Below are positions 1 through 5,632 of a stretch of DNA of 9,460 bases, in pieces. The translations under genes were made by a program, and so were the position numbers. Source of the stretch: Elusimicrobia bacterium HGW-Elusimicrobia-2 (GTDB lineage Bacteria > CG03); contig PHAM01000066.1 of the NCBI GenBank assembly GCA_002841685.1, positions 1 to 9,460 on the forward strand. Reading direction: 5' to 3'. The number at the start of each line of letters is the position of its first letter. The stretch's first letter is position 1. The notes under the pieces were generated by a model. The model ran no database searches and had not been told where the DNA came from. It was given only the letters and a program-made list of their open reading frames with translations.

Positions 1-303
1 AAACAACAGTCTGTCATTCCGAACGAAGTGAGGAATCTTAGATTTCTCAGTCGTAAAAACTCCTTCGAAATGACATACAGTGTGAATAATCCAGATTATA
101 TAGCCCTGCTCCTGCAAAGATGTGTATAAAGATTCATTTCCCGCCACATATCCAATAAACAAAAAAGCTTTTTCCACATTAAATTTATCCCGCAGATAAA
201 TACGGAATTTCGCGAAATCAAGTTTCCAGCCCTGTGCGCGAATAGACAAATTTAAATTCTGGCTGTCTATAAACGCATAAATATTTTCTTTTATTTTTTG
301 CAT
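1..303 (-). CDS. NYN-domain (LabA/DUF88-like) putative nuclease, 5' part only, interrupted by a repeat
   Basis: An open frame begins at ATG 303-301 and stays open for 101 codons to the window edge. Its first ~70 residues look like the start of a NYN/PIN-like ribonuclease domain: strand plus acidic motif FIDSQN (Asp13, Asn16), then QGWKLDF, then FLFIGYVAGN and LYTSLQEQGY. In this family the N-terminal Asp is one of several acidic metal ligands; the later ones are not seen here. From codon 77 (Cys-His-Phe-Glu) the frame reads through a palindromic repeat at 12-75, so the tail is probably not native and the protein is likely truncated or chimeric. The start has a good Shine-Dalgarno (AGGGGA, 316-311, 7-nt spacer) and follows the stop of the AlbA_2 gene by 13 bp, so it is the fifth gene of the accessory operon. 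The NYN assignment is by recognition of the pattern. Whether it is functional cannot be told from this window. Confidence 0.72.
   Translation of the reverse strand, partial: MQKIKENIYAFIDSQNLNLSIRAQGWKLDFAKFRIYLRDKFNVEKAFLFIGYVAGNESLYTSLQEQGYIIWIIHTVCHFEGVFTTEKSKIPHFVRNDRLLF
12..75. repeat. Palindromic dispersed repeat (MITE/REP-like) inside the NYN gene
   Basis: A ~64-bp unit has near-perfect terminal inverted repeats, tgtcattccgaa (12-23) against ttcgaaatgaca (64-75), and a central imperfect hairpin gaggaatc..gatttctc (~30-48). Its ends match a repeat type (tgtcattccgagcgaag..., general knowledge) found scattered between genes in many bacterial genomes. It enters the NYN frame at codon 77 without creating a stop. 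Confidence 0.75.
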
Positions 304-316
304 CTGCAAATCCCCT

Positions 317-1744
317 TTATCCGCGTTTCCATTCTTCTATCAACTTTCTTGCTTTATCAGTCAGCGTATATTTTCCTGTCTTGGCCGCACCCTCAAAGAA
401 AATAAGATTATTGCTTTTTAGAAAACTCAGATCCTTCTCTATGGTTCTTGTGCCGATATCAAATTTCTCAGAAAGATTCGGGGTATTGAACGGCTGTCCA
501 CCGTATAATCCTAAAAGAATGGAAACCATACGCTCGCGTCTATCTCCTTTTACACCGAACTTTACACCGAACTTTACACCGAACTTTACACCGACATTTA
601 TTCCGACATTTTCGCCAGGCCTCTTGAACTGTATCGTGTAAAAACTATTGATTAAAAACTGCGGCTCCGGAAGATTGGCCTCTGATAACGCCTTTTTTAT
701 TCTGTTGATCCCCGAACCCGCTTTCTCAACCTCGCCCATTCTATGAAAAAGCTCCGCAATAATCTGATTCCTGTGAACGCTCTTTTTTCCCAAATCATCC
801 AGCGCCATCCCCGGCGGCAGTCCCCCCGGATCAGATATTTCCACGCGGTCGCCGCCGTATATCTCTACCGTTATCCATGCGCCGTCAAAATGATAATCTC
901 TGTGTATAACCGCGTTGAGCACCGCTTCCCGCAACGCCTCTTTGGGAATTTCCAAAAATTCCTTGCGCTTAAGGTTTTTAATCTCGTATCTTAAAGGCAA
1001 ATGACTTTCTAAAAAAATCATGGCCTGCTTAACATTCTCCATAATATTGGCTTTCAACTCTTTTCTATCCAGAATATCTACTTTCTCCATACCGGATAAA
1101 AGCATACAATCCACGACTGCATGCTTTAGAAACCGCGCCGGGTCTTTGGCAAAAAACAAAACTCCCGCATTATTAAATTTCAACCGTTTGCCCTGCCGCT
1201 TTGCAACCGCTATATTTATCAGAAGATTTTCGGCCGTCATTCCCGCGGATGATATTCCGGCCATGTCCAGAAAATAACGGAAGGCCTCTTTATCAAAATC
1301 GCGGGGATACAAAAAATCTTCGCAAATCTTTTCGTCCCACTTGACCTGCCCTGATGAATAGAGAAACTCAATAATTTCGTCTCTGGTCATCTTTTGAGCG
1401 CTTGCTCCGCTGCGCAAATAAAACCCGGAAGAACACGCGAACGGCTTATCTCCGCCGGAGGCGACCTCAACAACAAGAATACTCTTCCCATCTTTTTTAT
1501 ACGGCGTAATTTTTATCGGCACAGCCGGATCGCAATTTCTGGCTATACTCTCCACTCTTGAAATCTGAGTATTGATATTCGCGATACCTACAATATGGCC
1601 GTCATTGCTGACCCCTATTATGACATTCCCGCCGCCGGAATTGGCAAAAGCCACAAGTTCGCGGTCAATTGATTTTGAAACCGACCTTTTGAACTCCGCA
1701 AACTGGCCTTCGCTCTGAGATAAAATAAAATCCAGTCTATTCAT
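317..1744 (-). CDS. AlbA_2 (Schlafen-type) / ATPase-like / winged-helix protein, putative transcriptional regulator
   Basis: This 475-residue protein has the three-part layout of the family often annotated as RecG-like transcriptional regulators. Residues ~11-125 form an AlbA_2 (Schlafen-type) domain with FAEFKRS, ELVAFANSGGGNVIIGVSNDG and the closing YLRSGASAQKMT. Residues ~265-350 form an HATPase_c_4-like region: EAVLNAVIHRDY (270s-280s), VEISDPGGLP (~301-310), then the conserved SVHRNQIIAELFHRMGEVEK..GSGI. Residues ~405-470 look like a winged helix with a DIGTRTIEKDL recognition helix. Between the last two, residues ~379-399 are a near-perfect G-V-K-F repeat. Known roles in the family are uncertain: DNA-binding regulation is often assumed, and AlbA_2 domains resemble Schlafen nucleases. 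Its ATG overlaps the helicase stop codon by 4 bp (ATGA), implying translational coupling. The NYN start follows 13 bp after its stop. Regulator versus effector cannot be settled from sequence alone. Confidence 0.88.
   Translation of the reverse strand: MNRLDFILSQSEGQFAEFKRSVSKSIDRELVAFANSGGGNVIIGVSNDGHIVGIANINTQISRVESIARNCDPAVPIKITPYKKDGKSILVVEVASGGDKPFACSSGFYLRSGASAQKMTRDEIIEFLYSSGQVKWDEKICEDFLYPRDFDKEAFRYFLDMAGISSAGMTAENLLINIAVAKRQGKRLKFNNAGVLFFAKDPARFLKHAVVDCMLLSGMEKVDILDRKELKANIMENVKQAMIFLESHLPLRYEIKNLKRKEFLEIPKEALREAVLNAVIHRDYHFDGAWITVEIYGGDRVEISDPGGLPPGMALDDLGKKSVHRNQIIAELFHRMGEVEKAGSGINRIKKALSEANLPEPQFLINSFYTIQFKRPGENVGINVGVKFGVKFGVKFGVKGDRRERMVSILLGLYGGQPFNTPNLSEKFDIGTRTIEKDLSFLKSNNLIFFEGAAKTGKYTLTDKARKLIEEWKRG
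549..608 (-). repeat. 12-bp in-frame tandem repeat coding for G-V-K-F
   Basis: Four head-to-tail copies of a 12-bp unit (plus strand tttacaccgaac) run from 549 to about 596; the last copy differs at its final bases. A diverged unit (tttattccgac) follows to about 608. On the coding strand they give the linker GINVGVKFGVKFGVKFGVK between the ATPase-like and winged-helix domains. Because the unit is a multiple of three, gain or loss of copies would change linker length without breaking the frame. Similar Gly-Val-rich repeats occur at this place in other members of the family (general knowledge). Confidence 0.93.
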
Positions 1745-4908: not shown

Positions 4909-4911
4909 TTT

Positions 4912-5217
4912 TTATGCTTTTGCATTCTGGATTATTTCATATTGTTTTTCTATTACTTTTTTGAATTCTTTTGATATTCTGCTCCAGTCAAGAACATCAA
5001 CCCGAAAGGGCAAATCTGATTCTTCAAAATTTTCTTTCAAAGCATAGAATGTTTTGTCGAAAAGTTTTTCTTTGCCGACAATAGCCAAATCAAAATCCGA
5101 ATAATCTTTAGCCGTTCCGGTTACCCTGGAGCCGAAAGCGCGCACTTCCAAATCAGGAATGTTTTTCCGGAGTATTTTTAGGATAATTTCTAAATATTGC
5201 GGCGCGACATCAATCAT
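4912..5217 (-). CDS. mntA: MNT-type minimal nucleotidyltransferase, antitoxin partner of HEPN
   Basis: This 101-residue protein is a minimal nucleotidyltransferase of the MNT (HI0073/MntA) kind. The diagnostic GSX10DXD motif is intact: Gly29-Ser30, ten residues, then Asp41-Phe-Asp43. A third acidic residue expected for metal binding is Asp74 in RVDVLDW. Length and layout match stand-alone MNT antitoxins. In characterised HepT/MntA pairs the MNT enzyme transfers AMP to a tyrosine in the RX4HXY motif of the HEPN toxin and silences it. The partner gene lies immediately upstream and carries that motif. The ATG overlaps the end of the HEPN gene by 8 bp, and the stop is 3 bp before the helicase start, so it sits inside an operon. 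The gene symbol is given by functional analogy, not by demonstrated orthology. Confidence 0.88.
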   Translation of the reverse strand: MIDVAPQYLEIILKILRKNIPDLEVRAFGSRVTGTAKDYSDFDLAIVGKEKLFDKTFYALKENFEESDLPFRVDVLDWSRISKEFKKVIEKQYEIIQNAKA

Positions 5218-5632
5218 TTTTGGCTTCTAAAACTTTGAGAAATGCTTTGGCTTCAAAAATAAACTTTTTAGCAGCTTCAAATGCCCGAGCGGCATTATGC
5301 GCATCATAAGTGTGAGAGGTTAAATTTCTTGCTTTATGATAGTCAAACCACGCAGGAACATCTTTAATTAATTGTCTCTCGGCGGCCATTCTAAACAACT
5401 CCTTTGTTGTCGCTCCATCTGCAACCTGTCCAGGGACATTTTCATCAAGCCATCTTTTCATAAATTTCCAGCAAAGTTCATAAGCCACCTCAAAACTTTG
5501 TATAACGCCGGATTTCAAGGTATCCTTATCATTTTTGCTAAGTGATTCATTGGCTTCATTGTTAAGATAGGAATTAAGCGCATTATCCAGCGCTTTAACT
5601 GCTTTCTGTAAACTACTTAGTTCAAGCGCCAT
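5210..5632 (-). CDS. hepT: HEPN-domain (HI0074 family) putative RNase toxin / nucleotidyltransferase partner
   Basis: This 140-residue all-helical protein belongs to the nucleotidyltransferase substrate-binding (HI0074) family. Typical segments are SGVIQSFEVAYELCWKFMKRWL (quoted as residues ~41-62 by its Gln-Ser-Phe-Glu and Glu-Leu-Cys-Trp core) and WFDYHKARNLTSHTYD (~95-110). It has an intact RX4HXY motif: Arg102, His107, Tyr109. In HEPN toxins Arg and His form the RNase site and the Tyr is the AMPylation target of the MNT partner. The ATG has a strong Shine-Dalgarno (AAGGAGG, 5646-5640, 7-nt spacer). It is the first gene of the accessory operon, 169 bp from mnmA. HI0074-type members are less clearly toxic than HepT, so toxin activity is inferred. 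Confidence 0.87.
   Translation of the reverse strand: MALELSSLQKAVKALDNALNSYLNNEANESLSKNDKDTLKSGVIQSFEVAYELCWKFMKRWLDENVPGQVADGATTKELFRMAAERQLIKDVPAWFDYHKARNLTSHTYDAHNAARAFEAAKKFIFEAKAFLKVLEAKND

What the first reader, a model, noticed from the sequence alone, without database searches (positions are those of the whole stretch)
1..5632. Five-gene HEPN/MNT - PLD-helicase - AlbA_2 - NYN operon, a candidate defence system
Seen: five minus-strand genes with junctions of 8-bp overlap, 3-bp gap, 4-bp overlap and 13-bp gap, the first with a strong ribosome site. Known: HEPN/MNT pairs are AMPylation-controlled toxin-antitoxin modules; PLD-helicase fusions, AlbA_2 proteins and NYN nucleases recur in defence loci. 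Inferred: they form one system in which a helicase-nuclease senses or attacks foreign DNA and HEPN and/or NYN act on RNA. I do not recognise this exact set as a named system, and there is no methyltransferase as in restriction-modification or DISARM.
Basis: partly seen in the sequence, partly recalled or inferred. Interest (0 to 1): 0.75.

Follow-up and report, generated by a model that had tools for sequence, protein, structure and literature searches.

The report
Restriction-like operon with swapped toxin cargo
The five genes are the cut-off front of a two-gene restriction-modification-like defence operon (a DNA helicase-nuclease plus, in its relatives, a DNA methyltransferase) whose relatives exchange RNase and toxin genes in one fixed position between the two.

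Summary
The genes and junctions are real, but the window is a whole contig ending in a dispersed repeat, so the operon is cut. The fifth gene keeps about 70 of ~164 NYN codons. The "missing" methyltransferase is a truncation effect or a local loss: in relatives, the PLD-SNF2 helicase gene is followed, directly or after accessory genes, by a ~1100-aa Eco57I/type IIG-like adenine methyltransferase in 71 of 72 testable loci across many phyla. I found none in this assembly.

The recurrent unit is therefore helicase-nuclease plus methyltransferase, not the five-gene set. Between them lies a slot: empty in 40 of 75 loci, filled in 35, 29 times by toxin, RNase or effector families (AlbA_2/Schlafen 12, Bro-N 5, NYN 3, YhcG 2, seven singletons). 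The 27 cargo genes checked were all co-directional. On the helicase tree, cargo is scattered almost as in shuffles.

HEPN-MNT is a separate, motif-intact type VII toxin-antitoxin: 98% identical to the sister genome, with identity falling to ~82% just inside the helicase gene, so the two have different histories.

Closest known: BREX-related type 2 and DISARM; their hallmark genes were not found nearby in 20 genomes. Mechanism is inferred.

The parts
5210..5632 (-). HEPN toxin gene (HI0074/NTase_sub_bind family), RX4HXY = RNLTSHTY at residue 102; strong ribosome site upstream
   Evidence: Pfam PF08780 4.6e-36, TIGR01987 80.8 bits over cut-off 55.8; matches solved HI0074 (1jog, 8.6e-15) and Legionella HEPN toxin (8xdj, 6e-9); motif
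4912..5217 (-). MNT antitoxin gene (minimal nucleotidyltransferase), GSX10DXD = GSRVTGTAKDYSDFD at residue 29
   Evidence: PF01909 6.9e-13; motif; 8-bp overlap with HEPN
1741..4908 (-). PLD-nuclease/SNF2-type helicase, 1055 aa: HxK at 134, GSSN at 155, Walker A GLGKT 278, DEAH 349, motif VI QRVGRINR 751. Core restriction gene
   Evidence: Pfam, PADLOC HKD+Snf2 model 3.5e-48 over residues 15-791, motifs; motif HxK..GSxN kept in 73 of 74 long relatives
317..1744 (-). AlbA_2 (Schlafen-type) - HATPase_c_4 - winged-helix protein, 475 aa; cargo gene in the helicase-methyltransferase slot, 4-bp overlap with the helicase
   Evidence: PF04326 8.9e-22, PF13749 6.9e-21, weak HTH_45; same place in G004 (L028, 80% identity) and 10 more loci
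93..303 (-). 5' part (about 70 codons) of an NYN-domain gene, truncated by a repeat at the contig end; second cargo gene
   Evidence: 62% identity to the complete NYN protein of sister genome G001 over residues 1-76; complete relatives read
1..105 (.). dispersed repeat with inverted arms, ends the contig and replaces the 3' part of NYN
   Evidence: 97-100% copies elsewhere in the genome; inverted arms 6-26/61-81
4840..4860 (.). inferred recombination boundary: identity to sister genome G001 about 98% to the right (HEPN, MNT, 3' end of mnmA), about 82% to the left (helicase)
   Evidence: sliding identity and third-position identity 0.97 versus 0.64

Best explanation
The window holds the 5' part of a restriction-modification-like defence operon. 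Its core is two genes: a PLD-nuclease/SNF2 helicase (present here) and a ~1100-aa Eco57I/type IIG-like N6-adenine methyltransferase with its own variable C-terminal region (present in relatives, beyond the contig end or lost here). SHOWN: the gene pair, its order, its spread over many phyla, and a slot between the two genes whose cargo is exchanged repeatedly, mostly among RNase, toxin and effector families. INFERRED: the methyltransferase marks host sites; the helicase-nuclease acts on unmarked DNA, the SNF2 motor translocating and the PLD domain cutting; cargo proteins are second-line effectors, possibly held in check by the restriction proteins and released when these are inhibited, as PrrC is by the PrrI system. 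The AlbA_2 (Schlafen) and NYN genes of the window are such cargo. The upstream HEPN-MNT pair is a self-contained type VII toxin-antitoxin in which MNT AMPylates the HEPN RNase; it sits next to, but is not co-inherited with, the helicase.
For: Methyltransferase after the helicase in 71/72 testable loci, Eco57I domain 1e-33 to 8e-35, DPAxGSGAF and NPPY motifs (43/45), PADLOC type IIG model E=0. More distant relatives (31-34% identical helicase) are also beside Eco57I/N6-methyltransferase genes in the three checked (L037, L040, L042). Slot: 40 empty, 35 filled, 29 of 35 with effector families; 27/27 checked cargo genes co-directional, 26 within -37 to +45 bp of the helicase, whereas only 6 of 63 upstream neighbours are co-directional and within 50 bp. 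Cargo labels need 31 changes on the helicase tree against 33.5 when shuffled; AlbA_2 10 changes for 12 occurrences, at least 9 forced by supported branches. AlbA_2 entered the slot more than once (at least 3 changes of label forced). Most slot effectors (AlbA_2, Bro-N, NYN, YhcG, Fic) come without a recognised antitoxin gene. PrrC-like AAA_13 genes follow the methyltransferase at -4 to +2 bp in three loci, ApeA-HEPN at -1 in another. HEPN-MNT boundary. Precedent for coupled toxins in R-M loci: PMC3506569, PMC3710099; for Schlafen-kinase-wHTH and HEPN/MNT as auxiliary effectors in BREX-type loci: PMC12839542.
Against: No phage-resistance, methylation or nuclease experiment exists for this family in what I read. 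The methyltransferase is absent from this genome's assembly, so the copy in the window may be incomplete in the cell. The sister copy G001 is broken by an ISL3-type insertion in the helicase and its methyltransferase reads as three ORFs. Coupling of cargo to restriction is inferred from position alone. One locus (L122) keeps helicase and cargo but only a scrap of methyltransferase. The sample is the 80 best matches to one helicase alignment, so frequencies describe this branch only.
Confidence: 0.68

Rival explanations
1. The slot is only a landing site for selfish toxin-antitoxin and mobile genes; the cargo has no functional link to the helicase-methyltransferase pair.
For: Cargo placement on the tree is close to random; an IS200-type transposase sits in the slot in L118; several cargo types are ordinary toxin-antitoxin pairs (MntA-HepT, HigB, PIN, AbiE).
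Against: 27/27 checked cargo genes co-directional and tightly spaced, though this may partly reflect the need to keep the methyltransferase expressed; most cargo is single-gene effectors without a recognised antitoxin, which a selfish addiction module would need; a clade of slot-specific AlbA_2 exists (6 loci, 100/100).
Confidence: 0.3
2. One reading: HEPN/MNT, PLD-helicase, AlbA_2 and NYN form one co-evolving five-gene defence system without a methyltransferase.
For: Tight junctions and one direction; HEPN-MNT-helicase-NYN also in the sister genome, split over two contigs that an 8-bp direct repeat joins to one ISL3 insertion.
Against: Helicase and HEPN co-occur in only 2 of 98 genomes searched; recombination break between MNT and helicase; the sister genome lacks AlbA_2 in the slot, and G004 has AlbA_2 without NYN; methyltransferase in 71/72 testable loci.
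Confidence: 0.04
3. In this strain the system is a decaying remnant: a repeat element interrupted NYN and the methyltransferase is gone, leaving an orphan helicase-nuclease.
For: NYN runs into a dispersed repeat; no methyltransferase elsewhere in an assembly estimated 96% complete; the sister copy carries an ISL3 insertion in the helicase and a split methyltransferase.
Against: Assemblies commonly break at repeats, and the missing ~4 kb could be among the unassembled sequence; the four upstream genes are intact with all motifs.
Confidence: 0.35

Closest known systems
Type-2 BREX-related (BR) systems, with the 'Hma' gene set grouped under BR (PMC12839542)
   Same: HKD(PLD)-SNF2 helicase fused at the N-terminus, an N6-methyltransferase, and auxiliary Schlafen-kinase-wHTH, HEPN and MNT effectors near the core
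   Different: Those are three-part, centred on a DUF499 ATPase (and DUF3780). In 20 genomes with this helicase DUF499 was absent (16) or on another contig or nearly 1 Mb or more away. The match of the window helicase to HmaA is partial (residues 581-760, 3.5e-23).
DISARM class 1 (DrmD SNF2 helicase, DrmMI adenine methyltransferase, DrmC PLD protein, DrmA, DrmB)
   Same: SNF2 helicase, PLD nuclease and an Eco57I-like adenine methyltransferase as building blocks; helicase matches DrmD models (9.2e-38), methyltransferase matches DrmMI models (1.6e-35)
   Different: PLD and helicase are one protein; the DrmD match is far below NCBI's cut-off (130 against 610 bits); no MZB/DUF1998-domain (DrmB-type) gene near the helicase in 20 genomes
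Type IIG restriction-modification proteins (Eco57I/MmeI-like)
   Same: The methyltransferase is one by PADLOC's model (PDLC03596, E=0 over most of its length) and keeps the catalytic motifs
   Different: Paired with a separate helicase-nuclease; no PD-(D/E)xK signature was seen among the conserved residues of its N-terminal 390 residues, and its predicted fold had no significant solved match
HepT-MntA (type VII toxin-antitoxin)
   Same: HEPN with RX4HXY and MNT with GSX10DXD, overlapping genes; nearest solved relatives HI0074 and the Legionella HEPN toxin
   Different: Sequence scores are below NCBI's HepT/MntA cut-offs: it belongs to the PF08780 (HI0074-type) class, which the HepT/MntA study also counts among HEPN/MNT pairs (PMC7641770)
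PrrC-PrrI (anticodon nuclease held by a type I R-M system)
   Same: Genetic layout: a toxic RNase gene inside or beside restriction genes; AAA_13 (PrrC family) genes follow the methyltransferase in L050, L080, L100
   Different: Core enzymes are unrelated in type; no inhibition shown; the window itself has no PrrC

Membership tests
Restriction-modification-like helicase-nuclease + methyltransferase pair | helicase with nuclease domain and intact motor motifs | tested here: met
Restriction-modification-like helicase-nuclease + methyltransferase pair | adjacent DNA methyltransferase in the family | tested here: met
   71 of 72 testable relatives
Restriction-modification-like helicase-nuclease + methyltransferase pair | adjacent methyltransferase in this genome | tested here: inconclusive
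   contig ends first; not found elsewhere in the assembly
Restriction-modification-like helicase-nuclease + methyltransferase pair | restriction of unmethylated DNA | not testable with these tools
   needs experiment
Type-2 BREX-related (BR/Hma) system | DUF499 ATPase in the locus | tested here: not met
   absent or distant in 20 genomes
Type-2 BREX-related (BR/Hma) system | N-terminal HKD nuclease on SNF2 helicase | tested here: met
DISARM | DrmB-type (MZB/DUF1998) gene in the locus | tested here: not met
   no MZB match near the helicase in 20 genomes
DISARM | DrmA helicase in the locus | not tested
   no dedicated search for DrmA
Type IIG restriction-modification protein (for the methyltransferase of relatives) | Eco57I/MmeI-type methyltransferase domain with motifs I and IV | tested here: met
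Type IIG restriction-modification protein (for the methyltransferase of relatives) | N-terminal PD-(D/E)xK nuclease | tested here: inconclusive
   no such signature seen among conserved residues; fold model mean pLDDT 83 without a significant solved match
HEPN-MNT type VII toxin-antitoxin | RX4HXY in HEPN and GSX10DXD in MNT, adjacent genes | tested here: met
HEPN-MNT type VII toxin-antitoxin | AMPylation-dependent neutralisation | not testable with these tools
   needs experiment

The most novel reading that the evidence does not exclude
A fixed slot between a restriction helicase-nuclease and its methyltransferase in which unrelated RNases and toxins, mostly without antitoxins of their own, are exchanged: the restriction complex would be a general guard that holds interchangeable abortive effectors, so that an anti-restriction phage releases whichever one is installed.
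Probability: 0.3. Interest if true: 0.7.

Novelty: new variant of a known kind. Interest (0 to 1): 0.5.

Why it matters
The proposal that R-M systems are coupled to dormancy or suicide genes (PMC3506569, PMC3710099) rests on scattered cases such as PrrC-PrrI. Here one compact two-gene core, spread over many phyla, carries at least eleven cargo types in the same place, so coupling can be tested by swapping cargo under a constant core. It also corrects a methyltransferase-less reading that came from a contig break.

Tried and rejected
Five-gene obligate system: rejected on co-occurrence and on the recombination boundary. 'No methyltransferase': rejected for the family, open for this strain. BREX-related type 2/Hma and DISARM membership: hallmark genes looked for and not found nearby. 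Nuclease in the methyltransferase N-terminus: AlphaFold model (mean pLDDT 83) and Foldseek against PDB gave no match with E below 0.01, left open. Literature searches for PLD/SNF2/Eco57I together returned nothing, and a search for Schlafen, NYN, Fic and HEPN with restriction-modification returned only the HEPN survey. Promoter/terminator scan of the operon start found nothing above shuffles. Plasmid and phage collections hold only relatives below 60% identity; the best ones listed are 25-34% identical.
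Full report
Observation. The five ORFs, their order and their junctions are as described, and four of the five family assignments are solid. The fifth is not a complete gene. The window is the whole of contig C16 (9460 bp) of a 1.78-Mb, 94-contig genome estimated 96% complete, and window 1-105 is a dispersed repeat with over 20 matches elsewhere in the genome, eight of them 96-100% identical; it has inverted arms, and the same family lies at the right end. The NYN ORF keeps about 70 codons before the repeat; complete relatives have 164-166 residues.

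What lies beyond. In the nearest genomes the helicase gene is followed by an Eco57I-type N6-adenine methyltransferase: G004, helicase-AlbA_2-methyltransferase; G001 (same genus), HEPN-MNT-helicase, then helicase-NYN-methyltransferase on a second contig; G026, helicase-methyltransferase-SIR2; G093, helicase-DUF2442-methyltransferase; G069, helicase-MNT-methyltransferase. The two G001 contigs join at an ISL3-type insertion in the helicase gene: the helicase flanks share an 8-bp direct repeat and C226 begins with an ISL3 transposase. In G001 the methyltransferase reads as three ORFs. No methyltransferase of this kind is in the window's own assembly (best match 1.7e-11 to another protein), so truncation and true loss cannot be told apart.

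Survey. An alignment of six helicases brought in 80 loci from 84,980 species, from many bacterial phyla and some archaea (582 relatives were confirmed, 80 kept). With the window and four genome-search loci this gives 85 helicases. Ten contigs end within about 110 bp of the helicase and three (window, L049, L106) end inside the cargo. Of the other 72, 71 have the methyltransferase downstream; L122 keeps only a C-terminal scrap. The methyltransferases (45 of at least 980 aa, median 1130) keep DPAxGSGAF and, in 43, NPPY; the C-terminal third is variable, as expected of a specificity region. Of the helicases over 900 aa in the 80 scanned loci, 73 of 74 keep HxK..GSxN of the PLD domain. In three of the more distant helicases (L037, L040, L042) the neighbouring gene was checked and is also an Eco57I/N6-methyltransferase.

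The slot. Between helicase and methyltransferase there is nothing in 40 of 75 loci and one or more genes in 35. Contents, by the profile built from the window's own genes and by Pfam scans of representatives: AlbA_2 12, Bro-N 5, NYN 3, YhcG 2, and once each Fic, MNT alone, MntA with HepT, AbiEii, TumE, Gp49/HigB-type with HTH, PIN, DUF2442; five 'other' (a DUF559 nuclease-like protein in L073, an IS200 transposase in L118, a wHTH fragment in L102, two without a recognised gene). The 27 cargo genes checked all read with the helicase, and 26 start between 37 bp before and 45 bp after its stop codon. By contrast only 6 of 63 upstream neighbours are co-directional and within 50 bp; downstream of the methyltransferase 24 of 45 are, among them three PrrC-type AAA_13 genes, an ApeA-HEPN, a YhcG, and a Gabija-like OLD-TOPRIM/UvrD pair. 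I did not do a blind count of effector families at the flanks, so the enrichment of effectors in the slot is against expectation, not against a measured control.

Exchange. On a tree of the 85 helicases (quick IQ-TREE, LG+G4) the cargo labels need 31 changes; shuffled labels need 33.5 on average and 11 of 200 shuffles are as low. AlbA_2 alone needs 10 changes for 12 occurrences, at least 9 forced by supported branches; shuffles 11.4. Cargo thus turns over almost as fast as the tree can record. On the AlbA_2 tree the slot proteins need five label changes, three of them forced by supported branches: one clade of six slot proteins, the window/G004 pair apart, and others scattered. The non-slot rows were chosen as the best matches to the window's AlbA_2, so their nearness to it is partly by design.

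HEPN-MNT. HEPN carries RNLTSHTY (RX4HXY) and MNT GSRVTGTAKDYSDFD (GSX10DXD), the signature pair for AMPylation-controlled toxin-antitoxins (PMC7641770, PMC11586414). Against the sister genome, HEPN, MNT and the 169 bp before them are 98-99% identical, mnmA and the ArsP-type permease gene about 94.5%, and the helicase 84% with third-position identity 0.64; the drop lies about 60 bp inside the helicase gene. Synonymous divergence of this kind points to replacement of the helicase side by recombination, so the pair and the helicase have different histories. Of 98 genomes HEPN was found in 8 and the helicase in 14; both together only here and in G001; every HEPN found has MNT beside it.

Mechanism. 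Most likely an R-M-like pair: the methyltransferase marks host sites, and the helicase-nuclease attacks unmarked DNA. Cargo would be a second line: AlbA_2/Schlafen and NYN as RNases. Schlafen proteins with the same kinase-like and wHTH tail, and HEPN and MNT, are listed as auxiliary effectors of BREX and BREX-related loci (PMC12839542); HEPN toxins are linked to many R-M loci and proposed to be held by them as PrrC is (PMC3710099, PMC3506569). All of this is inferred from position and family.

Known or new. The building blocks are known. HKD-SNF2 helicase plus N6-methyltransferase occurs in BREX-related type 2 systems, but with DUF499; in 20 genomes with this helicase DUF499 was absent or far away, and so was the DrmB-type MZB domain of DISARM. 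PADLOC holds models for an HKD+Snf2 protein (C3a139, 3.5e-48) and for the type IIG-like methyltransferase (E=0) separately. I found no paper in the held library that describes this pair or its slot, but the library lacks most subscription journals. I rate it a new variant of a known kind; the exchange of effectors at a fixed position is the part worth following.

Noticed in passing
window 1-105 and 9389-9460: Dispersed repeats with inverted arms (TGTCATTTCGAA...TTCGGAATGACA type) end the contig on both sides; over 20 matches in the genome, many at contig ends.
   Followed up: partly
L033:9826-11091 and L032:1088-3004 (genome G001): The sister genome's helicase gene is interrupted by an ISL3-type element with an 8-bp direct repeat (AAAAATTA), and its methyltransferase reads as three ORFs.
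   Followed up: partly
L050:16584-18836, L080:8412-10667, L100:17051-19279: AAA_13 (PrrC-family) genes directly after the methyltransferase, starting -4 to +2 bp from its stop.
   Followed up: partly
L070:9761-11140; L096:7936-11632; L029:9389-11795: ApeA-HEPN, a Gabija-like OLD-TOPRIM plus UvrD pair, and a SIR2_2 protein directly or closely downstream of the methyltransferase.
   Followed up: no
L122:1-4514: Helicase and Bro-N cargo kept, methyltransferase reduced to a C-terminal scrap: a possible orphan helicase-nuclease.
   Followed up: no
window 4912-5217: The MNT protein matches residues 1-98 of a PADLOC type I specificity-subunit model (PDLC03138, 1.4e-30), suggesting MNT-HsdS fusions exist.
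   Followed up: no
window 317-1744: AlbA_2 protein matches a PADLOC pAgo model over residues 22-370 (3.5e-24), and has a tandem GVKFGVKFGVKFGVK linker before its winged helix.
   Followed up: no
genome G109 (L109): Two close copies of the helicase (52-53% identity to the window's) in one Ignavibacteria chromosome.
   Followed up: no
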